A stretch of DNA of 64,000 nucleotides from Brachypodium distachyon. Lineage: Eukaryota > Streptophyta > Magnoliopsida > Poales > Poaceae. A model generated the notes under the pieces. That model searched no databases. It was given only the letters and a program-made list of their open reading frames with translations, and was not told the origin of the DNA. Both the position numbers and the translations under genes were made by a program. Below, piece by piece: positions 19,141-56,740 of this stretch (the first letter of the stretch is position 1; every line of letters starts with the position of its first letter). Location: the NCBI RefSeq assembly GCF_000005505.3, contig NC_016131.3, forward strand, positions 28,263,001-28,327,000. The letters run 5' to 3'.

Positions 19141-19290
19141 TCAAGAGATATGTAGAGCCATGGTTCGACGTGATCTCCAAGACAACAGGACACAAGAAAT
19201 GGGAGTTGAACACCACTTAGTATTGGTCAGTATGGAACGGCCCCTCTGTGCATCACTGATACCTCCCATGCCAAATTACCGAGAAACAAA
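19141..19290 (+). ncRNA. MIR2118-like hairpin candidate A1 (22-nt word at 19253-19274)
   Basis: The word at 19253-19274 contains CTGATACCTCCCATGCC and matches the grass miR2118 consensus, as I remember it, at 17 of 22 positions. About 90 nt upstream GCCATGG…CGTGATC (19157-19175) can pair with it in the lopsided way miR2118 star strands do. Established role of the family: 22-nt triggers of phased siRNAs from non-coding PHAS transcripts in grass anthers, and of NB-LRR P-loop sequences elsewhere. The fold is judged by eye only. Confidence 0.45.
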
Positions 19291-20502
19291 CGAACAGCCG
19301 AATTGATGAAACGATAGAAAGCTGCATCCTCAAGAGAGAGTATCGGACTAGTTTAGAAATTTTAAGGCTCTCCCACTGGACTACCTTTTATAGTAGGAGT
19401 GAGGTAGAAAGGAGAACTTCCTCTTCAATCCATCAAATTAAACTAGGTTTACCTCATTGAAGGTAAGATAAGATAAGATAGACTTAATATCCGAGCCGTG
19501 TTACTTTTGACATATTTAGTAAGGTAGTACATGGTCATTGATTGCCAAACCTTCCAGTACCCCCATCGATATCTACCCACACCTTCTGGACCACACACAC
19601 ATGTACACCTCCTTTTTCTTAATCTCTAGGGCCATGTGATTAGCAGTCGGTCCTCTCTCATTTCTCTCTCTCATCTTTTCTCTCATGGGTGTGCTCCCAA
19701 TCCCACCTCTCTCCTCCCTCTCCTTTTCTCTCTCTCATCCTTTCCCTCTCCACAGTACATTCTCTCTCCACGGGCTTTATTCCCCTTCTCTCTCCATGGG
19801 CTCAGACGAAGCCAACCACGCGAAGCCAAATCGCCAAACCTCCTAGCACCCCCATCTTCTAGACCACACACGTGTGTCATTGATTAATCAGTAAGGCAGT
19901 AGTATGTCGGTGGACCTCCTTTATGCTCCTCTCTAGTGGTTATGTGTCGTATATACGGATTTGGTAGAATCCTAATAGTAACAGCGCATTGGCATGCATT
20001 AAAGTTCTTTTGGAAAAATTTTTGTTCGTAAATGTATTATGGAAAACCTTTGCTTGACCACGGTCGAACTGGCCACACATGCGGGACCAAAGAAAACCGT
20101 TCAAACCTTATCATTTTTGCTTTCCATGTTTTTCCTTATTCCTTTGCCCGCACTCTTCTCTCCCATCGTTTTGTCTTCCATATTCCAAGAAAGCACCAAA
20201 GAAAAAGAGTTAGAGACCGAGGCGAAACAACAACCCATCGAGTCAGATCCGACGGGCCCGGGATCGAGCCGGACTGGCAACGAGACGGTTGGCCGTGCTG
20301 GTGACAGACGTAGTGTGCCGGAGACAAGACAATAAGCTTATCATCCGAGACCTTGCGGGCCGCCCTAGGAATGGAAAATGATCTCGTACCACATGCTGCG
20401 GGTGAAAGGGCAACAAATCAACAGTTGGCACATCGTCTCATCCAATTGACCACAATTCAATTGTGACCCCATGATCTGTCTATGTGTTATTGTGCATTTC
20501 CA

Positions 20503-20520
20503 TGTCCCGGTACCTCCGAT
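20503..20520 (+). ncRNA. MIR2118-like word A2, 3' end deleted
   Basis: TGTCCCGGTACCTCCGAT matches the 5' part of the complete word in copy B (41074-41095). Copy A lacks 10 bp (GCCGACCGAT in copy B) between two CGAT repeats, removing the 3' third. Probably a dead copy. Confidence 0.4.
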
Positions 20521-22983
20521 CTAACGGGTAGGGCCAACGAAATAACAAAAAAACATAGGGATGTCCTCGACTTTATATATTAACCGTCTGAGTCAGCAAT
20601 CTTCACGTGAAATTGCACGCAATTTCCATATAACGAAGAAGTTCGAACCCCAAACTTGGATTGATTCCACCAGAGATATCTGTGAGCGACCGTAGATTGA
20701 GTTGGGTTTACACTTGCAGTTGAAACGGATTGATGAAGGGAGAGGACAAAACTGAAACTCATAAATAAGAGGAGGATAGGCACGGCAAAAAGATGGTGAT
20801 GTACTATTCAATTAATGAAGGGTAGGTAGGGGTGGTTCAGGCTTAAAACGATTTTTGTTAGCAGCTTAAGTACACATACCTTTGAACAAACAATCATAAC
20901 ACAGTAGTAAGGGAGGTATATGATGGAATATCACGGTTTTGACTCAAAAGGAAAACTAAAACACAAGATTCCGCATAACAAGCGTGTTAGCCTGTTGGAT
21001 ATATATACTGTAGTTCTTATAAGAATTTCACAGAAAATCGACGGAAGAGGAGGTTCATGCCTGAAGAACACCTAGAATTCCTCCAAAGTTCACTTGGATT
21101 GATCTGTTACATAAGAGTTCATATGAATTAAAACAGAGAGTGTCTATTTCTCAGTCGACTTAGAAATAGTTATTTTTCAGTCGACGATCGTAGCCATCCG
21201 TTGAAGATTTTCTCATCATTTTAACTTGGACAAGTCGTACACAAATCTTAGTGATTGAATTAGACGGTTGTTAGCATCGACTTAGAAATAGTTATTTCCC
21301 AGTCGCCTTAGAAATATAAAAAACCGATTAAAATACTACTAAAATTTCCTATAAAAACCTTCGCTCCAAAAGGAGCCCTAATTAAATTGATGGGGTACAA
21401 ATAAAGGTCCGAGATATCATGACGGAAAAAGCTAAAGATAAAACTGTAAGCAGCATGCTAACACAAGAGGTCAATTAGTCAAGTCGACTGTAAGTCGTAA
21501 CAATTGTTTCCACTTTGATCCTTGACTCTGCTTAACTAATCCTGTAACTGATGTATAGTGATGCCTACAATATGGTTGTGGAAAGCAGAGCACCGCTGGT
21601 GTTGGGTCTCAAGAAAGAGCAGGTACAATAGTTCACCACGACCATCCTAAATTCTTTATACCTTCCATGCTCAAATGCTGATGAACTGGTGAATTGAGGA
21701 GCCAAGGAAAAGAAACGATATCTTGGCAATCAACTGCATCCTCACTAGCCGATAAGTAAAAAATTGCTACGAGGAAGTTAGAACAAGTGACGTAGTATTA
21801 AACAAAGATCCTACCAAACGCCAAACCATTGGAGATAAGCATCCAAAAAAAAATGCTGAGTCGCTCCAAAATACGAAGAAGTGGGACTTCCACTCCGATG
21901 CGCGCGGCAAGACGAGGATGCTTTACATGGGATTCCATTCAGCTTTATCCACTACGATGGTTGCACGAGCCCCGTGGCAAGTCTAAACCCGTGGTTCCAT
22001 GTGATCTCCAAGACAACAAGCAAACGAGAGTTGGGTAAGTAGTACTACCACTAGATGCTTTTTAGCATTTGACTTAGATAAAAAAAAAATTAGATGATGG
22101 TATAAGAAAAAGACAAAATTGAACCACCTTTGTTTTTTAAACAACGATCTGGCTTTATTTATTCAACGAATAAAATACATAAGATCGAAAAAACTAAAAC
22201 GACAACAAAGAGTTCAGATAAACCGAAAGTTACATCAAAAATCTTTGAAGCCGCTATGCACCATAAGTGAAATTATGTCCATCCAGTCCTCCCAAGTTCC
22301 TCATCCCTCACATAGTAAAGATAATCCTTTTCTGTGAAACCGCTATGCTCCATAAGTGAAATTAGGTTCTTTAGTTTCAGCACAGCCCTTCCTACCGTCC
22401 TCTCGACATAACCGCTAAGACCAAAACGCAGTTTCACAATCCACAGCTCATCATCGAAACTGAAATCGACAAAATTGAAACCAGTAACCAAAAACTAAAC
22501 TTTATAAACACTACATTGAACCAAAATTGAAGCTTTTCATCCGTCTAACAATGGCGGAACGGAAAGCCCCAATTGCGGATTAGGTGGTGCGCATGGTAAA
22601 GAATCCGCCAAAACGACTGGACAATACCAAAATTTCCCGTCCCCCAAGCCATCTAATGACAACAAATCCCAACAAATCGACGTCGATCACGGCCTATTTC
22701 AAAAGTTCGGGAAACCCTAGTTTTACCCCGCACCTAGCTCTAACCCTAGAAAATAGGGGAAATGAAGATACAGCGGCGGCGGATGGGAAATACTTACTCC
22801 AAGCCGGCCGTGGAGTCCGTCCAGTCGATCTTCTCCGACACCATCCTTCACCGCTGGCGACCGCCGGTCTCGTCTCCGCCCCTTCACCCTCTCCAGTTTG
22901 AAGGAGAGCCACAAGGAGCTAACAGTGAAGTGCGGGAGTTGGAATGGAGAGGGGCCGGGCGGAATCCATATTAATTTCCCTAT

Positions 22984-23197
22984 AACGGGCTAACGGGTCG
23001 GGTCGGGTTCGGATCCGACGTGGCACCTGACAGCGGGCCCCACCTGTAAGAAATACTATCAAACGCCTCCCCAATCGTGTTTTGGGTGAACTGAGAAAAT
23101 TAGCGAGAAAAACTGTGGTTCAGCGAGAAAAAAAAACCACGAACTGTGGTTGCTTGAAAAGCCTGCCTCAAGAACTGTGGTTCTTTGAAATTTACTC
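22984..23197 (-). repeat. MULE right TIR
   Basis: Inverse partner of 14569-14781, ending in the complement of GAGTAAATTTCAA. The split Stowaway resumes at 23198. Confidence 0.92.
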
Positions 23198-23255
23198 AAA
23201 GCGTTTAAATACATCTAATAAAAAGTCACTTAACATGAGATGGACGGAGAGAGTA

Positions 23256-24590
23256 CATCTGCAATGCAGCCAAACGAGCAGTAACCACACATCTGCCAAG
23301 AGGCCACACAACATTTCTGTCATAATAATTCAAGGAAGTCGCCGGAGCATATATGCAACCTCCACTACGCGCGCACAGACCCTGGAACTCCATCTTTCCA
23401 TGTTGAGCTTTGCAGTATTTAACGTTGACGCATTCTGGTAGTATTGCTTTTTGGGTCAACAAGTTAAAGGAACTTTTACATGCATGATCCAACGCCCAAG
23501 TGGCTTCTGGGGCTTTAAGACCAGTAGTTCCTTTTGTTTTTAAAATCACGCGTGCTTGTAGATGGGCTCATACTATACGGCCGGCCAAGTAAAAGGGATC
23601 AAAGGCATTGCCATCTCCTTTGCCTAAAGATTGATGCCGCGCAATGAACAATGTTTTCACAGAAAAGAGGATGCATTAGGGAGTGGCGAGTGCCATTACT
23701 TGTGATGATTAGATTCAGTGAGGCACACAATGAAAAAACAACTTTCTAGCGACAGGCAGTGTGGTACACATGAATGTCCAAGCCTCATGGGAACTTTCCA
23801 AAAAGGAAAAAGCTAGCCTCATAGGAACCATCCAGGAAATTAACAGAGGTGCTCTGATAAGTGATAACCGCATAGGAGTATGTATTAGAGTTTTTATCTT
23901 ATAGGATATTCTCTTTTATCCATAAAGAAATTTATGATGCCAAAGTATTATCATTTGCCATCAGAGCATACCTACTTGTACATTTGGTGTCGTAAACTTT
24001 CTCAACTTTGACAGCATTTATGCCACCAAATTAGTATCATTAGATTTATCATGAAATATATTTTTCATATATACCATTTCGGTGCCATATATAACTATTG
24101 CCCAATTTTTGTATAGTCTCGGTGAAACCTCAAAAGTAGTTTGACTTTCGAAGAATATTGAAAATGCATCTTTTGTTGCACGTAGAGTAGAAATATTGGA
24201 AGCGGCCTAATGGCATAGTACATGCATGATGGTACCTCAAAAAAATTGCACAAATTCCACTTATTTTTTTGCATATTTCTCAAGATGTTGTAAAAGAATG
24301 AATATTAAGTTATTAGCACCAAAGAACAAAACATATATTTTCTCGTATTTACTTCTGGCCGTGCGAGCTCCCACGTTAAGTGCACTCGACCGTCCCAACT
24401 CCAAAGCTAGATATACTCCCACTAGCTGCTAGCTAGGAACCAACGAAGAAACAGTGAAACACACACCGCCTTTCCAAAGAGCTAAAGGAATGATTAGACC
24501 AAGCGTCGTTGCGATTTCAATTCTGTTAGTGGAGTGGCCACTTAGCCACTGGCTTGTTCTCGTACTAGCATTGTTGGTTTGGTATCTTGT
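23256..24590. other. Intergenic DNA, no gene seen
   Basis: AT-rich, with short overlapping ORFs only. No motif, repeat end or splice-consistent coding stretch was found. Confidence 0.5.
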
Positions 24591-24597
24591 ACTCCTG

Positions 24598-24605
24598 TAT
24601 ATATA
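24598..24605 (+). promoter_or_regulatory. Probable TATA box of the four-exon gene
   Basis: TATATATA lies 51 bp before the ATG at 24656, so a start of transcription about 30 bp downstream would leave a short 5' UTR. Confidence 0.55.
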
Positions 24606-24655
24606 GTACACCACCATGTCTCGCTCTCCTCGGCGAATCCAATCAATCATACCGC

Positions 24656-26344
24656 ATGGATCGCAAAATTCGCAATCAGGAAACAAAGCCTGAGAGTATG
24701 CAAAGGCGTGTTAGTTCCGATGCTGCGAGGACATCCGTTACTGTGGATGAAGATCGTCCAACTCAGAAGATTAGCGGTAAGTACGTAACAGTGAGTGCTT
24801 GTAATTTCTAGATAGCTAGTTATGTAGTGCTTTCCTTTAAGAAGAAGAAGAAGCTATGTTTGGATTTCACTCTGGCGAACTTCATCATATAGGGTATGTA
24901 GCTATCTTGTATACAACCTCTGTTTCCATAAAACTTGTCCCTGTTATGGTGCAAATTTGAACTAACGACGACAAGTTTTATAGAACGGAGGGAGAGTAGC
25001 TAGCTTTAGAAGTAAGAAGTAATAATGAACCATTGCACAAAATGCAGTTTAAGACTGGGATCTACCATCTTTTCTTTGTACTTTTGAAATACTGATTCTT
25101 GTCTTTGGGTTCCCTACTACGTACAGTACTGATCAAGCTCTAGTTCCTCACCTTCCGCCTTGTGAGGACGCATATAGTAGTACTGCACCAAAACATATAT
25201 ATTTTTCTTGATATTTTGTGTTGTTTACAAAAAATGTACCAAAAAGATATATAAACTTCTATAAAACCTTGGCGTTTTCCAGAGGAAACTTCCTTAGGTT
25301 GATCAAATTCTGTTTCCCTGAAAACAATTGTACTGAAATATTTGAAATACCAGACATATATAGGTCTAAAAATAAGAATCTATTAAATGTAAAATGGCTC
25401 AAATAATTCAGGTAGACCTGGAAAATAAGAAAACCAGTGTATTATCAGTACATACATCTCAAAAAATAAGGGGGAAACTGCACTGAATTAGATTTTACCA
25501 GCATGGCTATATAAGTTTCAATTAATGGAAGAGATCACTTCACACAGGTTTCAGCTTACACAGCCAAACCTGCTTACCAATATGATTACAGCGAGGTGCA
25601 GTAAGGTGTTGCATCTTCTTTTGTATATAGTATACTTAATTTCATATCATTGTCCATCCTCTACAGCTTACATCAACCAAATGCAAGAGAATCTCCATGC
25701 CCTTAAGTTAGAACTCGAAAAGGGTACAATTGGTACCAATGTCTCTGAGGATGGAAAAGCTCGCTTGGAAACATGTGTGATGTCATGCGTGGCTACCTTT
25801 GTTTTTGGGGAAGCGAACCAGGTGAGCTTGGTCGCCATCCTTAATTTTTCACATGTGACACTGACACGCCTTTCACTTCAAGATACCAGGGACACAGCAT
25901 TGAACTTACAGAGCTCTATTTCATTTTGCAGCAAGACCCAAAAAAGTTTGAGTTGAAGCTTACTTGCGGCGACCAACAATCCTCCACGAACGGACCATCA
26001 GTGGAAATGAGCTACATTCAAACTGTACCCACGAACGCATTACCTAAATAATACTCAGTCCGTCTGGAAATAAGTGACGTGAATTTGTATAAGAATTTTT
26101 ATTCACGGCACTTATTTTGGGACGGGGAAAGTAGCACACTTTCTACTCTGAATCCTGATAGTATGCTGTTTCTTTGCTGGACCAGGACGTGCCCAACAGA
26201 CGCAAGGATATTCCGCAGCTGGGAACATACTTGGACGTCCAAGAAAAAACACTGGCCTGTGTCATAAATGGCGCCAGGGAAGCGATTGATAAGGATTCAG
26301 AGAAAACGGTGGGCAATCGCGGCAAAGACAAAGTTAAGGACTAA
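24656..26344 (+). CDS. Small plant protein of unknown function, four exons, 175 aa
   Basis: Exons 24656-24776, 25667-25821, 25932-26024 and 26186-26344 join with GT/AG introns in phases 1, 0 and 0 to a 176-codon frame ending TAA. The protein starts MDRKIRNQETKPESMQRRVS, is hydrophilic, has a helical stretch (YINQMQENLHALKLELEKG), a short Cys/Val segment (LETCVMSCVATFVFGEANQ), then KKFELKLTCGDQQ and DVPNRRKDIPQLGTYLD. It ends Lys/Asp-rich (GNRGKDKVKD). I do not recognise the family. A TATA box sits at a proper distance and the third intron holds a Stowaway MITE. An alternative read-through of intron 3 would stop at 26047-26049 after exon 3. Consistent phases across four exons argue for a real gene; expression is untested. 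Confidence 0.65.
24918..24995. mobile_element. Stowaway MITE, short
   Basis: CTCTGTTTCCATAAAACTTG at the left pairs with CAAGTTTTATAGAACGGAGG at the right. It lies in intron 1 of the small gene. Confidence 0.75.
26052..26133. mobile_element. Stowaway MITE in intron 3 of the small gene
   Basis: TACTCAGTCCGTCTGGAAAT at the left pairs imperfectly with TTTTGGGACGGGGAAAGTA at the right, bounded by TA. Confidence 0.8.
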
Positions 26345-29413: not shown

Positions 29414-29426
29414 ACGCAATTGCTCT

Positions 29427-29916: not shown

Positions 29917-29929
29917 ACGCAATTGCTCT

Positions 29930-31568: not shown

Positions 31569-34056
31569 CTATTTTGGCTGCTTATTATGCAAGGAAAAGC
31601 CTGCAAGCATGACCTGTGCGAGCTGAAAGAGGAACAGCAAGACGGCGCCAACGAAGGCAAAGAAGTGCACGTCGTTGTCGCAGTGGATCTCACGGAAGAA
31701 TCCGCGGAAATTGTTCCACTTGCTCTGGCACAGCTCCTGCAGCTTGTTCCAGTTGGGGTTGAGGTAGTTCTCGTCGGGGCTGTCGACGTCCAAGACCACC
31801 TCCCTGCAGAGGTCGGCGAAGCCATTGACGACCTCTCCGTCGTTGCCGAGGAAATGCTGGACGACCCCGGCCCGCTGCAGGAGCTCGACGTCCTCCGCCT
31901 TGCCGGCCAGCTGCGACATGAAGACGCAGTAGGCCGTGACTGGCCTCCGGTCCATGCGCTCCTCCAGCGCCATCAGGTTGCGCAGGAGAGTCCACGTGGC
32001 GCTGTCGATCAGGAGGCATGGCATCAGCAGTGTGCGTCCCTGCAGGCTGACGTCGAGCACGGAGTCCGCCTCGCCGTCGTCGTCGGCCAAGTGCAGACGC
32101 TTCAGCTTCACGTTGCCGTACCGGCAGTACTCCGTCGCCCGGCGCCACCGGCCCATGCGACGGCGTGGCGAAGGCACTCGGGGTTGGACGACCGTATTGC
32201 CTTGAGCTGCTGTTGGCGGCACCTCCTCCGTGATATCCGGTGGAGACTCCTCGACGACGACCGTCTCGCCCTGAGCTGCGGTGGACGTCGACGACGACCG
32301 TCTCGCCCTGAGCTGCGGTGGACAGCACCTCCGTATTATCCGGTGGAGACTCCTCGAGGGCGACCGTGTCGCCCCTTGTGCTGGGTTTGACTGCGGCTCG
32401 GAGGCGACGTCCAGCACCAGGTGTTCCTTCTTCGTCCGACATTTTTCGGTTGGCATGAAGTAGGCGTGCACCAGGTGAAGCAGGGTAGATGGGACGTCGT
32501 CGGATGCCGATGCCGGCAACCGCCGTGGCCTTCCGCTGGTGTGGAGTCGGTCCTTCAGCAGCGACCGGACACAGAGAGACAGGTCTTCGAGGACCGAGCG
32601 GTCCTCATTGCCGACGATGCAGTGATGCAACTTCTCGAGGACGAACCAAGGAACCTGGTTCTCAAGCAAGAAAAGGGTGTCGCGCATGACCCAGTTCTCC
32701 TCCCGCATAACGACCGGGCCCGGGCCCGGGCCCGGGCCGCTGCCAGCTTCGTCAGATGCTGATTTGTAATCTACGAGGAAACTCAGCACGTAGCACCCGT
32801 CGTGCAGCAGCATCTGCACGAACTCCTGACGGTTCTGGTTCTCAAGCAAACGGCTGTTCCTGGCTGAAAGATCGGGATAGCACGCCTTCGCCTTCGCCAG
32901 CAGCTTGTTCAGCTCGTCCATTGTTTTGGCCCTTTTCATGTGTCCGGGACGCAGGACCTTGTCGGCCGCATGCTGCTTCTTCTCTTCTGGAAGTTGAGAT
33001 GAACACCCAGGAGCACGAGGGTGGTAAGGGCCGATTGGCACGACCAACGGCGTGAACTGGCTTTCGTCCACGCTCCGGAGCTTTGGTCGGGCCATTCGGA
33101 TCAACACTTCTTCTTTCGGTGCATCATCCGCTCCTGCAGCTTGCATGTTGGATGCACCATTCGAAGTTACTTCACCTGCATGCCACAGTTAATTACTACT
33201 CCCTCCGTCGTATATGGATGTATCTATGCCTAAAAAGCGCGTAGATACATGTAATAGAAAGGACGGAGGAAGTACTATTTACTAGTAGTTCACGGCGATA
33301 CGTACGCCTACTGATGACAACAAGACCAAATTAGTGTTTTCGTAGCACATGACTGTCTGTATGCATGCAAGAAATACAGAGACAATCACTGAGAATGAAT
33401 CATGAAAAGCATTCCATACACACCACGAATGAAGATATATATGCCACCATCGGTTTTATGCAGATCATTCTGATCGGTCCTCCTACATATTGTTACAAAC
33501 ACACTATAGGAGTTTGAACGTTCAATGCCATGCATACTGTAACAGGTGAGGCTGAACAAAGAATATATAATGTGCATTTTGGCAATAAAGTTTGTACCGT
33601 TAGATTTAGCTTGATGAAAACATTCATTTGCCTGTGTTCTTGCAGCTATATATAAATTACTCTAAAATGAATATGCAGTCAAATATTGTATTTGGCAATC
33701 AAAGAGTATATATATACAGTCAAATATGTTATTCTATGAAAATACATTTCAATAAGAATCTATAAATATTACTTCCACACATCTAACCAAATGTTTGAAA
33801 ACAATGTCGGTGTTGATGTATTAAAAGTTTTATCAAGGAAAACTTTATCCCAGGGGACAATCTTCTAAACCAGGATCCAGCAAAACTAAGACAACTAAGT
33901 ACAACATATGCTACTTCAAAATTAATTGCACAAGTCTCAACATGTAAACTACCCATATATATATATGCCGAGATAATTATAATCTAAATGCGTTATATCC
34001 CATGCATGTAACTACCTAAAATGTAAAACTGGTATGTACTTCTTACCTCCAGACAT
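31569..34056 (-). CDS. DUF247 (UPF0481) plant membrane protein, two exons
   Basis: Exon 1 is only 10 coding bases (34056-34047, MSG plus one base). An intron of 871 bp follows, and exon 2 is 33175-31569. GT/AG ends and phase fit, adding GEVTSNGASN before the Met at 33146, total 538 aa. Family signatures on the minus strand are ESQFTPLVVPIGPYHPR, VLRPGHMKR-type motif, NRQEFVQMLLHDGCYVLSFL, VMRDTLFLLENQVPWFVLEK and the late SATWTLLRNLMALEE. The protein ends with a hydrophobic segment (FFAFVGAVLLFLFQLAQVML), a single C-terminal membrane anchor typical of DUF247. A Gly-Pro repeat and a duplicated TAAQG-T-V segment lie in variable regions. Biochemical function is unknown; some grass members determine self-incompatibility. 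A Stowaway lies in the intron. Confidence 0.88.
33197..33274. mobile_element. Stowaway MITE in the DUF247 intron
   Basis: TACTCCCTCCGTCGTATAT at the left pairs with GGACGGAGGAAGTA at the right, 78 bp. Confidence 0.85.
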
Positions 34057-39566: not shown

Positions 39567-39710
39567 CAGAAGATGATTTTTCCGTGTTGACGGTGATCAG
39601 AATATGAAAAAGTGGAAGTTTGATCCAGATGCGTGAAGATAAGAGCTAATCAGGATGATTGCTTTACAGGTGATTCCATTTAGCTCTGTCCACTACTATA
39701 TGGTTTCAAG

Positions 39711-39860
39711 AGATATGTAGAGCCATGGTTCGGCGTGATCTCCAAGACAACGGGACACAAGAAATGGGAGTTGAACACCACTTAGTATTGGCCAGTATGG
39801 AACAAACCGGCCCCTCTGTGCATCACTGATACCTCCCATGTCAAATTACCGAGAAACAAA
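39711..39860 (+). ncRNA. MIR2118-like hairpin candidate B1 (22-nt word at 39823-39844)
   Basis: Same structure as A1; the word differs by one base (CATGTC for CATGCC) and the upstream arm by one base (CGGCGTGAT for CGACGTGAT). 16 of 22 matches to the remembered miR2118 consensus. Confidence 0.42.
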
Positions 39861-41073
39861 CAAACAGCCGAATTGATGAAACGATAGAAAGCTGCATCCT
39901 CAAGAGAGAGTATCGGACTAGTTTAGAAATTTTAAGGCTCTCCCACTGGACTACCTTTTATAGTAGGAGTGAGGTAGAAAGGAGAACTTCCTCTTCAATC
40001 CATCAAATTAAACTAGGTTTACCTCATTGAAGGTAAGATAAGATAAGATAGACTTAATATCCGAGCCGTGTTACTTTTGACATATTTAGTAAGGTAGTAC
40101 ATGGTCATTGATTGCCAAACCTTTCAGTACCCCCATCGATATCTACCCACACCTTCTGGACCACACACACATGTACACCTCCTTTTTCTTAATCTCTAGG
40201 GCCATGTGATTAGCAGTCGGTCCTCTCTCATTTCTCTCTCTCATCTTTTCTCTCATGGGTGTGCTCCCAATCCCACCTCTCTCCTCCCTGTCCTTTTCTC
40301 TCTCTCATCCTTTCCCTCTCCACAGTACCTTCTCTCTCCACGGGCTTTATTCCCCTTCTCTCTCCATGGGCTCAGACGAAGCCAACCACGCGAAGCCAAA
40401 TCACCAAACCTCCTAGCACCCCCATCTTCTAGACCACACACGTGTGTCATTGATTAATCAGTAAGGCAGTAGTATGTCGGTGGACCTCCTTTATGCTCCT
40501 CTCTAGTGGTTATGTGTCGTATATACGGATTTGGTAGAATCCTAATAGTAACAGCGCATTGGCATGCATTAAAGTTCTTTTGGAAAAAAAATTGTTCGTA
40601 AATGTATTATGGAAAACCTTTGCTTGACCACGGTCGAACTGGCCACACATGCGGGACCAAAGAAAACCGTTCAAACCTTATCATTTTTGCTTTCCATGTT
40701 TTTCCTTATTCCTTTGCCCACACTCTTCTTTCCCATTGTTTTGTCTTCCATATTCCAAGAAAGCACCAAAGAAAAAGAGTCAGAGACCGAGGCGAAACAA
40801 CAACCCATCGAGTCAGATCCGACGGGCCCGGGATCGAGCCGGACTGGCAACGAGACGGTTGGCCGTGCTGGTGACAGACGTAGTGTGCCGGAGACAAGAC
40901 AATAAGCTTATCATCCGAGACCTTGCGGGCCGCCCTAGGAATGGAAAATGATCTCGTACCACATGCTGCGGGTGAAAGGGCAACAAATCAACAGTTGGCA
41001 CATCGTCTCATCCAATTGACCACAATTCAATTGTGACCCCATGATCTGTCTATGTGTTATTGTGCATTTCCAT

Positions 41074-41095
41074 GTCCCGGTACCTCCGATGCCGA
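41074..41095 (+). ncRNA. MIR2118-like word B2
   Basis: It contains CCCGGTACCTCCGATGCC; complete, unlike its twin A2. The arm candidate TTGGCACATCG (about 41000) is weak. Confidence 0.35.
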
Positions 41096-42715
41096 CCGAT
41101 CTAACGGGTAGGGCCAACGAAATAACAAAAGAACATAGGGTTGTCCTCGACTTTATATATTAACCGTCTGAGTCAGCAATCTTCACGTGAAATTGCACGC
41201 TATTTCCATATAATGAAGAAGTTCGAACCCCAAACTTGGATTGATTCCACCAGAGATATCTGTGAGCGACCGTAGATTGAGTTGGGCTTACACTTGCAGT
41301 TGAAACGGATTGATGAAGGGAGAGGACAAAACTGAAACTCATAAATAAGAGGAGGATAGGCACGGCAAAAAGATGGTGATGTACTGTTCAATTAATGAAG
41401 GGTAGGTAGGGGTGGTTCAGGCTTAAAACGATTTTTGTTAGCAGCTTAAGTACACATACCTTTGAACAAACAATCATAACACAGTAGTAAGGGAGGTATA
41501 TGATGGAATATCACGGTTTTGACTCAAAAGGAAAACTAAAACACAACATTCCGCATAACAAGCGTGTTAGCCTGTTGGATATATATACTGTAGTTCTTAT
41601 AAGAATTTCACAGAAAATCGACGGAAGAGGAGGTTCATGCCTGAAGAACACCTAGAATTCCTCCAAAATTCACTTGGATTGATCTGTTACATAAGAGTTC
41701 ATATGAATTAAAACAGAGAGTGTCTATTTCTCAGTCGACTTAGAAATAGTTATTTTTCAGTCGACGATCGTAGCCATCCGTTGAAGATTTTCTCATCATT
41801 TTAACTTGGACAAGTCGTACACAAATCTTAGTGATTGAATTAGACGGTTGTTAGCATCGACTTAGAAATAGTTATTTCCCAGTCGCCTTAGAAATATAAA
41901 AAACCGATTAAAGTACTACTAAAATTTCCTATAAAAACCTTCGCTCCAAAAGGAGCCCTAATTAAATTGATGGGGTACAAATAAAGGTTCGAGATATCAT
42001 GACGGAAAAAGCTAAAGATAAAACTGTAAGCAGCATGCTAACACAAGAGGTCAATTAGTCAAGTCGACCGTAAGTCGTAACAATTGTTTCCACTTTGATC
42101 CTTGACTCTGCTTAACTAATCCTGTAACTGATGTATAGTGATGCCTACAATATGGTTGTGGAAAGCAGAGCACCGCTGGTGTTGGGTCTCAAGAAAGAGC
42201 AGGTACAATAGTTCACCACGACCATCCTAAATTCTTTATACCTTCCATGCTCAAATGCTGATGAACTGGTGAATTGAGGAGCCAAGGAAAAGAAACGATA
42301 TCTTGGCGATCAACTGCATCCTCACTAGCCGATAAGTAAAAAATTGCTACGAGGAAGTTAGAACAAGTGACGTAGTATTAAACAAAGATCCTACCAAACG
42401 CCAAACCATTGGAGATACGCATCCAAAAAAAAAAAATGCTGAGTCGCTCCAAAATACGAAGAAGTGGGACTTCCACTCCGATGCGCGCGGCAAGACGAGG
42501 ATGCTTTACATGGGATTCCATTCAGCTTTATCCACTGCGATGGTTGCACGAGCCCCGTGGCAAGTCTAAACCCGTGGTTCCATGTGATCTCCAAGACAAC
42601 AAGCAAACGAGAGTTGGGTAAGTAGTACTACCACTAGATGCTTTTTAGCATTTGACTTAGATAAAAAAAATAGATGATGGTATAAGAAAAAGACAAAATT
42701 GAAGCACCTTTGTTT

Positions 42716-44124: not shown

Positions 44125-44310
44125 TGCACCGACGGGGCATCTGTCTCTGGGAGATCGCTCTGCGTCTGCGCGTCCTTGTCCTGTCACACCTAGCATGGTT
44201 TGATGCACTCCTCTGCAAACCATGCTAACATATATTGTATGCTGTTCTCGGCCTGTGTTTTGCTAAAATTCTGGCCCCGCAAGTCTCCTGATACCTCCGA
44301 TCCCGAACTA
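44125..44310 (+). ncRNA. MIR2118-like hairpin candidate (22-nt word at 44285-44306)
   Basis: The word contains TCCTGATACCTCCGATCCC, 17 of 22 matches to the remembered miR2118 consensus. A possible partner arm, GGGGCATC…TCTGGGAGA, lies at 44133-44155. Between them TAGCATGGTTT (44191-44201) and AAACCATGCTA (44217-44227) form a perfect 11-bp stem that could be the apex of the same long hairpin. Confidence 0.48.
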
Positions 44311-45342: not shown

Positions 45343-45717
45343 GTCTTCAATTTTTTATTTCTCTTAATATTTTGTTTTAAATTTTATATATGTACACTAA
45401 CGTAAAATAGCAGTATAAGATAATTTGTATATTTGTTTTATTTTTTTGTGCTCCGATTTTTTTGGATGAGTTGCATATTCCGAAAACCATAACGGCAGAA
45501 ATATTATATGTGCGAGTGTAATTATATAGGGTCTTCAATTTTTTATTTCTCTTAATATTTTGTTTAAAATTTTATATATGCACACTAACGTAAAATAGCA
45601 GTATAAGATAATTTGTATATTTGTCTTTTTTTTGTGCTCCGATTTTTTTGGATGAGTTGCATATTCCGAAAACCATAATGGCAGAAATATTATATGTGCG
45701 GGTGTAATTACATAGGG
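45343..45717. repeat. Tandem duplication, period 188 bp, two copies
   Basis: GTCTTCAATTTTTTATTTCT starts both units (45343 and 45531). The copies differ at only a few bases. Confidence 0.9.
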
Positions 45718-46920: not shown

Positions 46921-46942
46921 GTCCCAGCGTCTCCCATCCCGA
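46921..46942 (+). ncRNA. MIR2118-like word, weak
   Basis: It contains GTCTCCCATCCCGA; 14 of 22 matches to the remembered consensus. It shares CCCGAACTA with the site at 44285, suggesting common descent. No convincing arm. Confidence 0.28.
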
Positions 46943-48060: not shown

Positions 48061-48061
48061 T

Positions 48062-48083
48062 GTCCCGGTACCTCCCATACCAA
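48062..48083 (+). ncRNA. MIR2118-like word
   Basis: It contains CCCGGTACCTCCCATACC, 16 of 22 matches. Read on the minus strand it encodes GMGGTG, the P-loop signature, as miR2118 complements do; the surrounding ORF is not an NB-LRR. Possible arm GTATGCATGCC about 170 nt upstream. Confidence 0.38.
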
Positions 48084-48404
48084 GAAGAAAATCAGCAACC
48101 TTCTTATTTTCATCATTGCAAACTACTGGTTCTTTTGCGACATGGAATCTTAGGACGTTGTGTCCTAGCAAAATAAGATAGGGCTTTTGAGTGATGGATG
48201 GAGGCCAGGGGACCCTTCTTATATTGCATTGCATGGCAGTGCTCCTTCCCTTCGGCAAAAAAAAAGGAATAACAGCAAGCGAGAAAATCCACTTAGTGTA
48301 TATATATAAATAAAAGATAGAGACGGAGAACTAGAGGGTGTGTATATGTGGTATTTCGTAGAGCAAGGTCCTAAAATGGCTAGGCCTCCAAAGTCTCGAA
48401 AAGC

Positions 48405-48560
48405 AATCCATTCAACGCTCGTATGCATGTCGACCGGGATGACACGTACAAGCGAAAGAGCTGAACCATATCTCAGTCAAGTTGTTGTGACAGTTATGAT
48501 CCTTGCACATTTGCGCATCCAGATACCTCCCATGCCGACAAAACTACCATAGGTCAGATT
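48405..48560 (+). ncRNA. MIR2118-like hairpin candidate (22-nt word at 48517-48538)
   Basis: The word contains CCAGATACCTCCCATGCC, 17 of 22 matches. An upstream arm GTATGCATGTCGACCGGGAT (48421-48440) pairs with it unevenly. Pairing continues inward with GTACAAG near 48447 against CTTGCAC near 48504. This is one of the better hairpins by eye. Confidence 0.48.
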
Positions 48561-48616
48561 TGTTTGTCTTGTGGCTTAGAATCCTCCAAAGACGAGGTAC
48601 TACTCAGATTGTTTGC

Positions 48617-48732: not shown

Positions 48733-48849
48733 CTTATTTTCACCGTAGCACCAACGTCTAAACGAACAGTACATATACACGTTCAGCGAAAAATGTGCCG
48801 GTACTATTTTGTGCAAGATATTAATGCTCGGTGATACATCTCACCGGAC

Positions 48850-50300: not shown

Positions 50301-51343
50301 AGAGTTAATTAACAGGAAAGACACCGCTTGTGTCAGGTAACACCTTTTTGCATGTTACCTTTTTCTTTTTTCTCTCTCCTTTGTGTCAGTCAATTTTTTA
50401 TCTTTCTTCTCTCTCTTTTGTGTCAGTCACTCACGGTCTCACGTAAAGACCAATCATTATTTTCTCTAATATATATGTTTCTTTTATACAATAATTTAGA
50501 GGGCCACTTATATTTTTTGTATAATTTGACTAGTTGGTACGTATTACAGTATGATAGGTACATGTACACTAGACGATGGTACATAAACATTTTTTAGTAA
50601 AAATTCTACGAAATGTATTGTCGTGTATGATAATAAAAATTAGCCATTGTTTAATTCAAAAATACGGTACATGTTAAATGTACGCAAAGACACATCAAAA
50701 TAAGTACATCACTATCATGGTAATTAAAGTTAGCACTTTGTACCTCGTCGTTTTAATTACATAAATCAGCCATTGTCAATATAAAGTGTACATCATACCT
50801 CGTCTGCAACGAAAGTTAGTACATGTTAGTACCTTGTACCTCGTCATTTAATTTACATAAATCAGTCATTGTAGTCAGTACCTAGTACCTCATCCGCAAC
50901 GAAAGTTAGTACATCATGTTAGTACCTTGTACCTCGTCGTTTAATTTACATAAATCAGCCATTGTATATCTAAAATGTAGACAGCACCTAGTACCTCATC
51001 CGCAACGAAAGTTAGTACTAAGTGGAGTACTTTCTCAACCTTAGTACCTCATCAATTTTTAGTACGTAGCAAATACAACAAGGTGCATGTCAAGTACATT
51101 AGAACAATTAACAATATTTCGTCAATTTTATATCCTCAACAATTTTAAGTACCTTCTCAATTTGATGTACATCAAGGTACATGTCAAGTAACTTAACAAT
51201 TTGTGATATCAAGTCCTTGTACATCAATCCGTGCAAAAATAAGTACACGACAAGTACCTTCTCAATTTGATGTACATCACTAAAATTCACATTAAAATAC
51301 ATCAAACAAATCAATTTCAATTGATTGTTACACAATTAAATAC
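50301..51343. repeat. AT-rich tract with degenerate tandem repeats
   Basis: Units built on CCTCGTCGTTTAATTTACAT … CATTGTA … CCTCATCCGCAACGAAAGTT recur about three times (50740-51020), spacing roughly 100-120 bp. Shorter CAATTTGATGTACATCA repeats follow (51150-51290). No gene. Confidence 0.6.
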
Positions 51344-51860
51344 CTAAGTACCTCCTCGATCCTCATAGTACCTGGCACGGTCTGGTATCCAGTGGCAATC
51401 CTCAATTCCATGGGAACGAAGAATCGCCCCAAGCAAAGCATCAAGCGTCGGGAGGATCTTGTTACCCGACTGAGTTGAAGGAGGAGAGGTAGGGGCCCAA
51501 GCAAATTCCATGGCTGTCGTCCTCTCCATCGAGGGTGAGCTTGGCGAAGTGGCGGACCGAACCGGAGAGCGCCATGGCTGTGGCCGCCGCGAGCGCGACG
51601 GAGCCGCCCATGGTCACGGGCACAGTGAGTGAGGCCGAGGATTCGGGCTTCTGTGGAGATGGGGGCGGCGGGCCGAGTACACGGCCGGCGGAAGCCAAAA
51701 TCGGGCGGACGGCGTCCCGCACGGCGGCGGCGGCGGCGGGGGCCGAGACGAGGCCCCGCACGGCGGCGGCGGCCCGTGGCGTCGGCGGAGATCGTGGTCT
51801 TGCCGGAGGTGGCTGCGCGAAGATCGGGAGTTAAGAGAGGGAGAAAGAGAGAGAGAGGAG
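51344..51860 (-). pseudogene. GC-rich gene fragment, minus strand, unknown
   Basis: One frame gives SASLTVPVTMGGSVALAAAT and LDGEDDSHGICLGPYLSS and stops. The next frame continues coding-like with NKILPTLDALLGAILRSHG and HWIPDRARYYEDRGGT. A one-base shift may separate them. No family is recognised; it could be a captured fragment in a transposon. Confidence 0.35.
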
Positions 51861-52336
51861 TGGGGAAGATGGGGATGTGAGTAGAGAGAGATGGCCAGAC
51901 ACATCCGACTGCTAATTATTAGGTGCCAGAGGATTAACAGAACGTGAGTGGACACGTGAGTGGACAAGTGTGTGGACAATACCGTAGGTGTAGATCGCGT
52001 TAGCGGCACGGGGAGGTTTGGCGGGCTTGCTTCCGGAGATCCCATCCCAAATTGACTTCCTTTGCTTTGCATGCTACCATTATCAAAGGGTGCTGGCGCA
52101 GGCTGATGAAGGGCTCAAAGTGCGAAGAACAAAGAGGATTTCGTGATGGCCGGTATCTGGTGATGCGGAGCATTTGTGTAATCAACGGATTTTCAAGGGG
52201 ATTTCTTCTTCTGCTACTTCTGACCCTTCTTTTTGCTCAGCTGGAAGGGACCTCCTTCGAGAATCATTTAGGGAGTTGTTGTTTTACTTTCTTGTCGGGC
52301 GCCTGTAGTCAGGACTCATTTTTCTCCGACCATGTA

Positions 52337-52453
52337 TTACTTCCGTCTCATATTAAGTATCAAATATTACATATATTTAAACATTTTTTAGATATAAATA
52401 TATCTATATTTGACAAATTTGAATCACTTAATTAATATGGAATGGAGCAAGTA
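52337..52453. mobile_element. Stowaway-like MITE, degenerate
   Basis: ATTACTTCCGTCTCATATTA and TTAATATGGAATGGAGCAAG are imperfect inverted ends. Confidence 0.7.
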
Positions 52454-52880
52454 ATCATTTATATTCCCTGTTTAATAAAAAAAACAGAGCTCCTGCTAGT
52501 CGGTATAAAAAAACACAATTGCATCTCGACACCACAACATCTATCAATGATATTCAACGACTTTGTCGATGACCACTTGCCCGCTAACTTCTCATCTTCG
52601 CTTCACCAAATGGACGTCATAGTCTTCAGTTACTCGCACCGATGCAGTATTACAAATCGTCTCCCCTGGATAAGCATGGTTTCAAATTTTAGGCCTCAAG
52701 CGTATACCGATTATTATTCATGCACAACAAATTGACCCGAACACACAAGCACATGGAAGATCTCGATTCTTGGGCCGAAGGCACCTAACATGCGTTGCTT
52801 TTCTACGACTTCTCTCTTCCAATGGATTCAAAGCAGCTAGCTATGCATGTCAGCCAAAAAGCACGAGACTTGCTCGATCT

Positions 52881-52902
52881 CTCCCAATACCTCCCATGCC
52901 GA
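52881..52902 (+). ncRNA. MIR2118-like word
   Basis: CTCCCAATACCTCCCATGCC plus GA; 16 of 22 matches. Possible arm CACATGGAAGATCTCGATTC about 125 nt upstream. Confidence 0.42.
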
Positions 52903-53237
52903 CCCAATGGCTCGATCGGCCGAATGAGCTATAACGAGCTTAACAAGAGAAAGAGGTGAACGATGAATGAGCCGTATGTCACTAGTTCTAGAAAAGTTGG
53001 GGGCGTGGACATAAATAGGGTGAAATTTGAAAAATTAACTTAAAATCATTGCAGTAAAGACATCGGTCTGGTGTGTACTCTGCCAGGACATCCCTGGACT
53101 TGGTTGCTCCGCAGCGACCGAGGGTGGTCTCTCTGTAACTGTGTTGGTCGGAGGATAATCAAACTGTCAAGGACGTTCATTGTGGTGATCCTCTTGCCCT
53201 TAGCATATGGTCCCTCCGTCCGAAACAAGATACTGAG

Positions 53238-53361
53238 TACTTCCTCCGTCTCATATTGACAATTAAGTGTCTCAAAATTTTCCAAACATAAATGTATCTA
53301 TAACTAAAAAGCGTCTAGATACATGCAATATTTTGACACTTAATATGAGACGGAGGGAGTA
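53238..53361. mobile_element. Stowaway MITE
   Basis: TACTTCCTCCGTCTCATATT to ATATGAGACGGAGGGAGTA, 124 bp, nearly perfect ends. Confidence 0.92.
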
Positions 53362-53540
53362 TAATCTTGAGACTTTGACATCAGTGATCGCTTATCCTTT
53401 GGTGGATGGGGATAGTCAAGTTGAACTTAGCTAATTCAGAGGCTGTTATTGAGCTAACTAGCTAAGCCCGAGTACAATCACAGCAGAATTTTCCTGGTGA
53501 TCATTAGATTAAAACCAAAAACATGGTAGCCTAATTCTTT

Positions 53541-54088
53541 TGACGGAAACCTTTTCAAGAAGACAAGGTGCTCCTGCATTTCATTAAAAATAGAATGCCT
53601 CCGTTTATAAAGAAAATCGAACAATGCACAGCTTATTAAAAGAAAGTTGCACGAAGACCTTGACTACAAACATTACAAAGCAAAACCGATAAACAAGTGA
53701 CAACTGCAAAAGTGAGCCACCGCTCGCTCCAACGACACCGGACAAGGAACGGCTCCTAACGCCAGAAAAAGATAGGCAGAGCCGGGCTTCTCCAGGGATC
53801 GGAACGAAGAAGAGGTCACACGGTAGCCTATTTCTTAATGGAGTACATTATTATGGCCAACCATATTTGTTTTTTTAGCTACAAACAAAAGTATTTCTCA
53901 ACAAAACTCTGCAGTTCTACTCGACTGGATTGCCATTTGCATCACATGAAGGACACACATGTTGAGAACATGACCTTAAATAAATAAAGATTGTTCGAGT
54001 CATCTGGTTCCATCAAGTGCAATCGCATCCAGAAGAAAATAATGGTTGCGTTGTTTTCCAGTCTCACGCCTATGCTGCATGTCTACTC
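53541..54088. other. Intergenic DNA, no gene seen
   Basis: 53560-53820 has the look of the 3' end of a minus-strand retroposon (CTCCTGCATTTCATTAAAAA) but no partner was found. Confidence 0.3.
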
Positions 54089-54110
54089 TTCCCGATGCCT
54101 ATCATGTCGA
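54089..54110 (+). ncRNA. MIR2118-like word, degenerate centre
   Basis: It begins TTCCCGATGCCT, as typical miR2118 does, then has ATC in place of CCC; 16 of 22 matches. Confidence 0.3.
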
Positions 54111-54341
54111 AATATTTTTCGGCCTTTTAAGCTACCCAAAGATGACATTTTTCGTCTATTTTTGTCTATTTAGTGGACAGCGCTCGACTATATATCATGG
54201 TTATAAGTTACTAGCAGCTGAGATGTTTTTTTTTTTTCCTGACGTGTAGTGTGGGTGAGAATATAGAGGGGCAGGGCAAACAGAAAAGTACGGAACTCTA
54301 AGACCTTGTTTACATGCTGTTTTTTTCAAACTTCGAGAACT

Positions 54342-55202
54342 GGAGCATCTTCAGCAGGACTTCTAGACAGATTTCCTAGCGTTTTAGGAGCTGGAGAAAA
54401 AAGAACTTCAGCTGGGCCTCTACTTCGGTCCGTAAATTAGAAAGGCCCCTGTATCGAGCCATCAGCCCCCATTCCTAGGGCTCCTGTTCCACTTTTGCGT
54501 TCTCTCTTCTCCTCCCACGCGTCTTCCTTCTCTCGCCTGCGCCGTCGGTCGCCGCCACCCTGCTCCGCGCCTTCGCGCCTCGAGCTGTGCAGAGCCGCCG
54601 CTCGCCCGAGCCCTGGCCGCCGCCGCCGCCCTGCACCGCGCACCTCCGCTCGCCCGAGCCTCGAGCACGGCCGCGCGTCCCCTCTCTTTTCTCCTCCGTC
54701 GACGGCGGGCCGCCGTCGCCCTGCACCGCGCCTTCGCGCCCTGAGCTCCGAGCACCGCCGCGCGTCCCCTCCCTCTTCTCCTCCGTCGACGGCGGGCCGC
54801 CGCCGGCCTCCGCTCTGCCTCCGCGCCCGCCGGCACCCTTGGCCGCAGCCTTCGCCGCCCACGGCCACGCGTGCCGGTCTCTGCGTGCGGGGAAGAAGGA
54901 CACCGTGCGGTCCCCGCCGTCTTGTGACTGTGCACCGCGCCCCCCGCCGCCGCCGCCCGGTGGCATCGTCGATTCGGCCGCTGCTCTGTCGAGCTTGTGG
55001 GGAAGAGTGAGAAGAAAGGAAAAAAAAAGAAAACAGTAAATTACAAGTCATTGACAGGTAGGACCAATACGTCATAAAGCATGTAGGGGCTGTGAAATAG
55101 GGCCACTGCTGAAGATGTTTGGTTTTTTACCTTAAATTTGAGGGAAGCCCCTAAAAACTGTTTAGGCACCTTGTTTTGCAGGCTTCCGTTGAAGATGCTC
55201 TA
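54342..55202. mobile_element. TIR element with GC-rich cargo
   Basis: GGAGCATCTTCAGCAGG at the left pairs with TTCCGTTGAAGATGCTCT at the right, the style of grass Harbinger/hAT MITEs. The interior 54480-55000 is strongly GC-rich, with a roughly 105-bp unit (CGCGCGTCCCCTC…TCCGTCGACGGCGGGCCGCC) repeated twice. It may be a captured gene exon; ORFs on both strands are low-complexity. Confidence 0.6.
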
Positions 55203-56380
55203 ACATCGATAAAAAAAAAAGTCGGCTGAAATTAGGGAAGTTAAAGAAAACATTAGGTGCTACAGATCGAGCATATTGATCTGATCGCAGGAAACTGTTT
55301 GATGATTACGTGCAGAAAACGATATATAGCAGGCCGACTGAAAACCATGGAGGCCTAGTGAATAGATAACCGGCTAGTTCAGCAATTGGGCTTTCTTATG
55401 GGCTTTGCACATGCTACTTGTATGCAACATTATCTTTTTACCATGAGCACTGTCAAATTTGTGACTTTTGATTAACCCACTACACTGTTTGCAGAATCGG
55501 ATAGGTTCAACACATAAGCAAATTCAAAAATTAATTAAAAAATCTGTACAGTAAATGGCGGGATTTTCTGTCCCCTCAAATCCCAGTCCCTTTTAAAAAA
55601 ATGTACTCCCTCTTTGAACTAAATAGGAAAAAAAAATTAGAAACGGAGTGAGCAGTACCAAAGCCTTCATACCAAGTGACTACGAAGCCTTTCTCAAAAA
55701 AAAAAGTGACTACGAAGCCTGTTGCAATCGTTTGTCTCTGTTTCCATCTCTCGTGATGTTCCACGGAGAACAACCTCTTTTTCCATGTTTAGGAACTGGG
55801 AAGCGCCACAGGTTTTGCAAAGAACAATGCAGTCACGAACTGTAACAAAGTCGAAGATACGCCACAAGTTTTGCAGAGAACGATGCACAAATATAACGAA
55901 GTCGATGCAAACCATCGATGGCTTTTATTTTCTGTTGGTAGTACATTTTGAGAGTCCCGCAAGAAAAGTACATTTTGAGTACTCCTGATCTTGTGATGCG
56001 TGATTGTGTGTGTGATGCAAAAACAATTTGGTTGAACTGATCTGGCAAAAAAGTTATATATATACGATGGATTTAATAGAACCAAATTAGAGTCGTAGAA
56101 GTTTATAGATTGTTTAAAGGGTTTGACTTAGGACAACGTTATGACTTCTTACATTTAGGGAGTAGTTAGGATGTAAAGTACGTGACGATGGAGAAAAGAA
56201 ACTTCATGTTTTAGTAGTTGCAAATGAGTAACAAGTTCTTTTTTTAAATATAGAAATAAAAATAATTGATTTGCCATGATGGGAAACTCATAGTCTCTTT
56301 CCATGGGTTTTTGGTTCAGATGATTAGCGCATACAATTTAATAGGTACATCACAAAATGCACTAACCTTCCTCACAGAAC
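55203..56380. other. Intergenic DNA with a small tandem repeat at 55804-55912
   Basis: CGCCACAGGTTTTGCAAAGA (55804) and CGCCACAAGTTTTGCAGAGA (55860) begin two 56-bp units. No gene. Confidence 0.5.
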
Positions 56381-56417
56381 GGTGGTTTGCATCAACGAGT
56401 TAAGTGATCGCCTCCAT

Positions 56418-56740
56418 GAAGGTGGGAGGCAAGGCTGCTTGAATAGATCACCGAACTTCCCTAGAAGCGTCAGCATTTGGGAGGCTTCCATTTTCAATAA
56501 TGCCACCTTTCAGCGTGAGCACAGAGTGTTAGCCTTATGCAGGGAGATCAACTTAGTGGTTGATCTTGCAGCAAGGCTTGTGCTCCTGCGAGGAGCCGGA
56601 GAAGCCGCCGGCGGGGGCGGCGAAGAGGGGCCAGCGTGGTTATCAGGAGTGGGAGCAGACCGAGGCAGTCTGAAAGTTTCCAGAAAAGGGTCGAGGGCCC
56701 CTGCAATTCCCAATACCTCCCATTTCTAGCTAACCAATTA
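56418..56740 (+). ncRNA. MIR2118-like candidate (22-nt word at 56707-56728)
   Basis: The word has the best match of all, 18 of 22 (TTCCCAATACCTCCCATTTC). GAAGGTGGGAGGCAAGG at 56418-56434 could be its arm, which would give an unusually long loop of about 265 nt with a GC-rich insert. The word itself is convincing; the hairpin is uncertain. Confidence 0.42.

What the first reader, a model, noticed from the sequence alone, without database searches (positions are those of the whole stretch)
19141..56740. Cluster of about eleven miR2118-like sequences, all on one strand
A 22-nt word with the core ACCTCC[CG]AT[GAC]CC recurs at 19253, 20503 (truncated), 39823, 41074, 44285, 46921, 48062, 48517, 52881, 54089 and 56707, always on the plus strand and outside protein genes. 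The grass miR2118 consensus as I remember it agrees at 14 to 18 of 22 positions. Chance recurrence at this density is very unlikely. miR2118 genes are known to be clustered in rice and other grasses and to trigger reproductive phasiRNAs. Read backwards, several words encode GMGGxG, the NB-LRR P-loop, as expected for this family. Most carry ATACC where the usual grass form has ATGCC, so this may be a divergent subfamily.
Basis: partly seen in the sequence, partly recalled or inferred. Interest (0 to 1): 0.9.

Follow-up and report, generated by a model that had tools for sequence, protein, structure and literature searches.

The report
miR2118 target-site cluster, not microRNA genes
The repeated words are not microRNA genes: read on the other strand they are complementary to the plant's own miR2118 microRNAs, and the DNA beside them is enriched for a C/G pattern every 21 bases, so they likely mark a cluster of non-coding genes that would be cut by miR2118 and diced into reproductive small RNAs.

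Summary
The words are real and far above chance, but the miRNA reading fails. The window holds no MIR2118 precursor (Rfam RF01911: 0 hits). In the same genome the 34 reported RF01911 matches all lie elsewhere, at C6:13.92-14.00 Mb and C5:7.47 Mb. The 16 genuine loci fetched there carry a star strand 65-79 nt upstream of the word; the nine independent window loci do not. Read on the MINUS strand, 10 of 11 words pass the published Brachypodium cut-off for miR2118-triggered phased loci (13 such sites in the window on that reading, 0 on the other strand). Best reading: a supercluster of miR2118-triggered 21-nt PHAS loci, read leftwards, reaching about C1:28.457 Mb.

New and unexpected: the phase register shows in the genomic DNA. 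From the predicted cleavage point, C is enriched at register position 1 and G at position 19 (so both strands of each 21-nt duplex would tend to start with C), every 21 nt for about ten cycles, downstream only. The test was written down, then run on 68 held-out loci (z 6.84, rank 1 of 21 offsets). The window's nine loci together show it too (z 3.99), though few do singly. Small-RNA data for these loci could not be checked here.

The parts
19253..19274 (-). miR2118 target site (penalty 3.0); copy of 39823; lacks 5 nt just 3' of the site relative to 39823, which shifts its register
20504..20525 (-). broken target site: lacks 10 bases relative to 41074 (penalty 7.5, fails the cut-off)
39823..39844 (-). 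miR2118 target site (penalty 4.0)
39602..39832 (-). predicted phased region, 11 cycles of 21 nt, read leftwards; register imprint ranks 1 of 21 offsets for this locus alone
   Evidence: extent inferred from the all-locus decay
41074..41095 (-). miR2118 target site (penalty 4.5); no individual imprint
44285..44306 (-). miR2118 target site (penalty 3.5)
46921..46942 (-). weak miR2118 target site (penalty 5.0)
48062..48083 (-). miR2118 target site (penalty 4.0)
48517..48538 (-). miR2118 target site (penalty 3.5)
48296..48526 (-). predicted phased region of the 48517 site; register imprint ranks 1 of 21 for this locus alone
   Evidence: extent inferred
52881..52902 (-). miR2118 target site (penalty 2.0)
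54089..54110 (-). miR2118 target site (penalty 4.0)
53868..54098 (-). predicted phased region of the 54089 site; register imprint ranks 1 of 21 for this locus alone
   Evidence: extent inferred
56707..56728 (-). best-scoring miR2118 target site of the window (penalty 1.5)
21652..21673 (-). marginal site at the cut-off (penalty 5.0), duplicated at 42232-42253; not among the words given

Best explanation
The words are not microRNA genes; on the minus strand they are complementary to this genome's miR2118 microRNAs, and they likely mark a supercluster of non-coding 21-nt PHAS genes whose transcripts would be cut there by miR2118. Inferred steps: each gene is transcribed leftwards from its own promoter; 22-nt miR2118, made from hairpin clusters on other contigs (C6 and C5), cuts between the bases opposite miRNA nt 10 and 11; RDR6 makes the 3' fragment double-stranded and DCL4 dices it in 21-nt steps from the cut. 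Shown here, over loci taken together: from exactly that predicted cut, C at register position 1 and G at position 19 are enriched in the genomic sequence every 21 nt for about ten cycles. Because a 21-nt duplex has 2-nt 3' overhangs, G19 is the 5' C of the opposite strand, so both strands of each duplex tend to start with C. The likeliest cause (inferred) is selection for loading into a MEL1/AGO5-type Argonaute, which in rice binds 5'-C 21-nt phasiRNAs.
For: No hairpin: RF01911 0 hits in window; the 34 reported RF01911 matches of the genome lie on C6 and C5, 19 over the cut-off (only the best candidates are scored there); model R1, trained on 8 genuine loci, gives 75.7-107.6 bits at the fetched words of 8 others and at best 12.7 bits (E 0.81) in the window; star-like strand at -65 to -79 with 0-4 of 20 mismatches in 16 of 16 genuine loci versus 7 or more mismatches in 43 of 43 target-type loci. 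Target sites: with the Jeong 2013 scoring (mismatch 1, G:U 0.5, at most 5; passage), best over 13 miR2118 variants of this genome, 13 sites on the minus-strand target reading, 0 on the other strand; 10 of the 11 given words pass. Similar words form further clusters; the 22-nt pattern has 132 matches against 0 in the reversed-pattern control. Register imprint (7 cycles): exploratory 43 loci z 5.49, held-out 68 loci z 6.84, window 9 loci z 3.99, offset 0 first of 21 each time; upstream control z 0.26 and -2.29. Periods 14-31: only 21 stands out (z 9.56; next 2.28). C is 56% at the first base of the second predicted phasiRNA. Without that cycle z 7.27; then C alone 4.75, G alone 6.03.
Against: No small-RNA, PARE or transcript data could be mapped, so transcription, cleavage and phasing at these loci are not shown. 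Single loci have little power: offset 0 ranks first in 3 of the 10 intact given sites (39823, 48517, 54089), second in 2, lower in 5. Without 48517 and 54089 the window keeps z 1.97. Eight other loci of the same C1 supercluster give z 1.85 with rank 2. Imprint strength does not rise with site quality (Spearman -0.04, p 0.65). The TATA-box test of transcription direction was inconclusive. The single usable duplicate pair shows no constraint (2 of 10 imprint positions differ against 16 of 122 other C/G). Local duplex energies alone do not separate the classes cleanly: 3 window words reach -20.5 to -23.1 kcal/mol, inside the range of the 16 genuine loci, -17.7 to -27.7.
Confidence: 0.93

Rival explanations
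1. A divergent MIR2118 subfamily: the words are mature miRNAs in plus-strand hairpins.
For: Similarity to miR2118, clustering and one strand. Three words pair moderately with nearby sequence (20503 as given -23.1, 48062 -21.4, 41074 -20.5 kcal/mol).
Against: No RF01911 match and no R1 match; no star strand; word position 1 not T in 7 of 11; duplex z-scores between -1.1 and 1.3 for 9 of 11 words; the register imprint on the opposite strand would be unexplained.
Confidence: 0.02
2. Same target sites, but the loci are decayed or act as decoys (target mimics) that hold miR2118 without making phasiRNAs.
For: Site penalties up to 5; 20504 is broken; 19253 is out of register with its copy 39823; several loci lack an individual imprint.
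Against: Target mimics carry a bulge opposite miRNA nt 10-11 (recalled); here nt 10 and 11 pair in 9 of the 10 passing given words. The nine window loci together carry the imprint.
Confidence: 0.06
3. The C1/G19 imprint reflects a cutting preference of the Dicer, favouring loci that keep the register, rather than selection for Argonaute loading.
For: The imprint is strongest in the first five cycles, and both positions are at the cut ends of the duplex.
Against: The base is C, as preferred by rice MEL1 (passages of PMC10247740 and PMC7305157).
Confidence: 0.2
4. Antisense relics of NB-LRR P-loops.
For: The minus strand of several words spells GMGGIG or close to it.
Against: Stops in the GMGG frame within 70 codons in 11 of 11; no NB-ARC hit in 20 of 58 listed ORFs, of which one (56328-56729 +) overlaps a site.
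Confidence: 0.01

Closest known systems
miR2118-triggered 21-nt reproductive PHAS loci of grasses (Brachypodium: PMC4053937; African rice: PMC4788661, passages of both; Johnson 2009 and Komiya 2014 recalled)
   Same: Clustered, outside long ORFs, one miR2118 site each, flanks mostly not alignable between loci, published penalty cut-off met.
   Different: Phased reads not shown here; a genomic C1/G19 register imprint was not mentioned in the passages that I read.
MIR2118 genes (Rfam RF01911; Bdi-MIR2118ab)
   Same: Nearly the same 22-nt word.
   Different: No hairpin, no star strand, kilobase spacing in most cases instead of tandem words at roughly 200-280 bp, position 1 free.
5'-C phasiRNA loading by rice MEL1 (AGO5c)
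   Same: C at siRNA position 1 and G at position 19, as reported for small-RNA reads (PMC7305157, passages).
   Different: Here seen in genomic DNA at loci picked without any read data.

Membership tests
MIR2118 gene family | Precursor hairpin matching RF01911 | tested here: not met
   0 RF01911 hits in window; 34 reported elsewhere in the genome
MIR2118 gene family | Star strand opposite the word | tested here: not met
   16 of 16 genuine loci have it (the pattern was taken from one of them); 0 of 9 independent window loci, 8 or more of 20 mismatches
MIR2118 gene family | 22-nt mature reads | not testable with these tools
   no small-RNA data
miR2118-triggered 21-nt PHAS loci | miR2118-complementary site, penalty at most 5 | tested here: met
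   10 of 11 given words; 20504 fails at 7.5. Best of 13 genomic miR2118 variants, more lenient than the paper's two
miR2118-triggered 21-nt PHAS loci | Non-coding | tested here: met
   10 of 11 words lie in no ORF of 130 codons or more; 56707 lies in a 133-codon plus-strand ORF without Pfam match. Spliced genes were not modelled
miR2118-triggered 21-nt PHAS loci | Little conserved between loci but the trigger site | tested here: met
   flank alignments exceed the null 95% point in 4 (upstream) and 6 (downstream) of 55 pairs
miR2118-triggered 21-nt PHAS loci | Clusters and superclusters | tested here: met
miR2118-triggered 21-nt PHAS loci | 21-nt phased small RNAs from the cleavage site | not testable with these tools
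   no reads; the genomic 21-nt register imprint is an indirect sign
miR2118-triggered 21-nt PHAS loci | PARE/degradome tag at the site | not testable with these tools
miR2118-triggered 21-nt PHAS loci | Promoter 5' of the site on the target strand | tested here: inconclusive
   TATA motifs 25-120 nt upstream in 16 of 43 by a loose pattern, 0-11 of 43 in eleven other stretches; 6 of 43 against 1-2 of 43 by a directional pattern

The most novel reading that the evidence does not exclude
The phase register of reproductive phasiRNA genes is written into their DNA. Natural selection keeps a C at the start of both strands of each 21-nt duplex, for about ten cycles after the miR2118 cut, so that the products load into a C-preferring Argonaute. 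PHAS bodies are therefore not free to drift, and active loci, their strand and exact register can be read from a genome assembly alone.
Probability: 0.72. Interest if true: 0.82.

Novelty: new member of a known kind. Interest (0 to 1): 0.66.

Why it matters
PHAS precursors are described as poorly conserved apart from the trigger site (strawberry, PMC8368212; wheat, PMC7057497; passages), and how far the sequences of the thousands of phasiRNAs matter is, to my knowledge, still debated; in rice, editing two PHAS loci changed targets and fertility (PMC7695705, section 9 read). A register signal in the DNA, at exactly the bases that decide Argonaute sorting, would say that selection acts on the products across many loci. 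It also offers a read-free, many-locus test of register and strand. The duplicated pairs in this window are natural experiments: one copy has a broken trigger site (20504), another is 5 nt out of register with its twin (19253).

Tried and rejected
Hairpin folding with the best length chosen per word did not discriminate: 60 random positions reached up to 20 paired bases, and one search folded the wrong strand for minus-strand loci; not relied on, replaced. TATA-box direction test: suggestive, then inconclusive. Imprint against site quality: no correlation. Constraint from duplicate pairs: a single usable pair, no power. In one search the row labelled 20493 used an arbitrary register and is not used. 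NLR relic reading set aside. Dispersed repeat set aside: flanks of most locus pairs do not align beyond chance. Literature for a genomic register imprint: listings and passages (section 9 of PMC7695705) did not show one; Patel 2018 and Tamim 2018 (New Phytologist), the likeliest places, were seen only as citations and not read, so priority is open.
Full report
Observation. The words exist at the stated places and on the plus strand (20503 starts at 20504). Scored against a recalled grass miR2118 consensus, matches of 16 of 22 or better number 8 on plus and 0 on minus, against 7 in 30 simulated one-strand windows. A duplication with ~20.57-kb spacing links 19002-22096 with 39567-42679, so 19253/39823 and 20504/41074 are copies; there are nine independent loci. 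The 12-base core by itself is not over-represented in the genome (182 against 240 for the reversed pattern; the ATACC form 32 against 91); the cluster is the signal.

Genome. The window is G000:C1:28263001-28327000 in a 271-Mb, 11-contig assembly. Contig lengths (75.07, 59.13, 59.64, 48.59, 28.63 Mb) fit Brachypodium distachyon as I recall it. A tandem MIR2118 pair on C5 with a star strand between its two words fits the stem-sharing Bdi-MIR2118ab described in PMC4053937 (passages). The species name is therefore inferred.

Where the real MIR2118 genes are. Of the 30 loci fetched, 16 lie at C6:13.92-14.00 Mb and C5:7.47 Mb; many have neighbouring words 203-277 bp apart, and a star strand lies 65-79 nt upstream in 16 of 16. 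Their alignment folds into one stem with 25 pairs, 7 with changes on both sides. Rfam RF01911 reports 34 matches in the genome, 19 over the cut-off, all on C6 and C5 and none on C1 (36 of 20,279 candidates were scored there, so counts are lower bounds). In the window, searched directly, it finds none. RF01911 hits 3 of 3 genuine loci given as a control. A covariance model from 8 of the C6 loci gives 75.7-107.6 bits at the fetched words of 8 loci not used in training (some are close neighbours or paralogues of training loci) and at best 12.7 bits (E 0.81, around 56707) in the window; of 33 further sources given, one more reaches the list, at 12.5 bits and not at its word.

What the words are. 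If the word strand is the miRNA sense, the minus strand holds the target. With the penalty used by Jeong et al. 2013 for Brachypodium phased loci (mismatch 1, G:U 0.5, at most 5), taking the best of 13 miR2118 variants from this genome (more lenient than their two), the window has 13 sites on this reading and 0 on the other strand; 10 of the 11 given words pass and 20504 fails at 7.5. Variation at word position 1 and the frequent G9-to-A change (a tolerated G:U) fit a target. In the GMGG frame all 11 stretches of 70 codons contain stops.

Supercluster. More words are listed beyond the window: five on plus (28340737 to 28365517) and four on minus (28425732 to 28456612), so the cluster spans about 174 kb and changes orientation once among the listed sites. 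Similar clusters occur on C1 (4.7 Mb), C3, C4 and C5, often but not always on one strand (C3:35.2 Mb is mixed). PMC4053937 reports 288 phased loci assigned to miR2118a/b in Brachypodium, and in African rice 529 of 892 phased loci had the miR2118 site near one end and loci were clustered (PMC4788661, passages). Whether these window loci are in the published Brachypodium lists I could not check.

Register imprint. PMC7305157 (passages) reports that rice MEL1-bound 21-nt phasiRNAs start with C and that anther phasiRNAs are enriched for G at position 19. I asked whether the genomic sequence shows this in the register set by the predicted cut (between the bases opposite miRNA nt 10 and 11). The exploratory set was 50 target-type items, 43 after dropping 7 near-identical ones (9 window, 34 others; the broken 20504, 16 MIR loci, L001-L008, L039 and two loci repeating window sites were left out). 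After seeing a first signal I wrote the statistic down and then fetched 77 unseen sites from the lists (six listed sites were left out beforehand as likely copies of a neighbour), 68 of them non-redundant. Statistic: C at register position 1 plus G at position 19, cycles 1-7, compared over 21 offsets with random rotation per locus. Exploratory z 5.49; held-out z 6.84; window alone z 3.99 (p 0.0004); offset 0 first of 21 each time. With 14 cycles: 4.06, 7.04 and 2.98. The same statistic upstream of the site: z 0.26 (exploratory) and -2.29 (held-out). With one locus per homology cluster (109 of 111) z is 8.63. Periods 14 to 31: only 21 stands out (9.56, next 2.28). The signal lasts about ten cycles; cycles 11-20 give z 1.57, rank 3. 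It does not rest on one cycle: without cycle 1, z 7.27 overall, 6.58 held-out, 3.43 exploratory. Genuine MIR2118 loci read the same way: z -1.17. Held-out subsets all put offset 0 first: C1/C3 n=6 z 2.49, C4 n=14 z 5.15, C5 n=48 z 5.96.

Base-level view. In 111 loci the base 11 nt after the site, i.e. the first base of the second predicted phasiRNA, is C in 56% and A in 7%; within five positions on either side no base exceeds 39%.

Natural experiments. 39823 has its best offset at 0 (score 9). Its copy 19253 lacks 5 nt at transcript position 36-41; its best offset is 16, i.e. -5, with the same score 9. The two copies share the pattern but one is out of register. Which state is older is not shown. 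The exploratory set happened to keep 19253; with 39823 in its place the window gives z 4.86 over ten cycles against 3.99. Copy 20504 has lost part of its site.

Limits and contrary results. Single loci are weak: among the 10 intact given sites offset 0 ranks first in 39823, 48517 and 54089, second in 44285 and 56707, and lower in the other five. Without 48517 and 54089 the window keeps z 1.97. The eight other loci of the C1 supercluster give z 1.85 and rank 2. No relation to site quality, no power from duplicates, promoter direction inconclusive. Homology below my thresholds could remain among loci. No reads were mapped.

Interpretation. The words mark likely miR2118 target sites of likely 21-nt PHAS genes. 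The imprint is best explained by selection for 5'-C on both duplex strands; a Dicer preference is the main rival for that last step.

Noticed in passing
window 31569-33188 (-): A 539-codon open frame covering nearly all of the DUF247 profile (Pfam E 8e-78). DUF247 genes are linked to grass self-incompatibility loci (recalled).
   Followed up: no
window 7682-13558 (-): Pieces of a Copia-type LTR retrotransposon (RVT_2, SH3, gag domains in separate ORFs).
   Followed up: no
window 16687-19080 (-): SWIM and MuDR-type transposase domains in ORFs on the same strand, downstream of the 19253 site; the predicted phased region would run towards them.
   Followed up: no
window 53237-53362, 33196-33275, 26051-26134: Weak matches to MIR1120 and MIR1862 models on both strands, below the gathering scores; probably inverted-repeat mobile elements.
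   Followed up: no
window 1734-3068 (+): ORF with most of an HSP70 domain (Pfam E 5e-104).
   Followed up: no
window 45343-45717 and 50720-50992: Short tandem arrays with spacings of about 187 and 95 bp.
   Followed up: no
G000:C6:13924587-13998659 and C5:7469426-7469840: The genuine MIR2118 clusters: 34 reported RF01911 matches including reverse-strand ones, 19 over the cut-off.
   Followed up: yes
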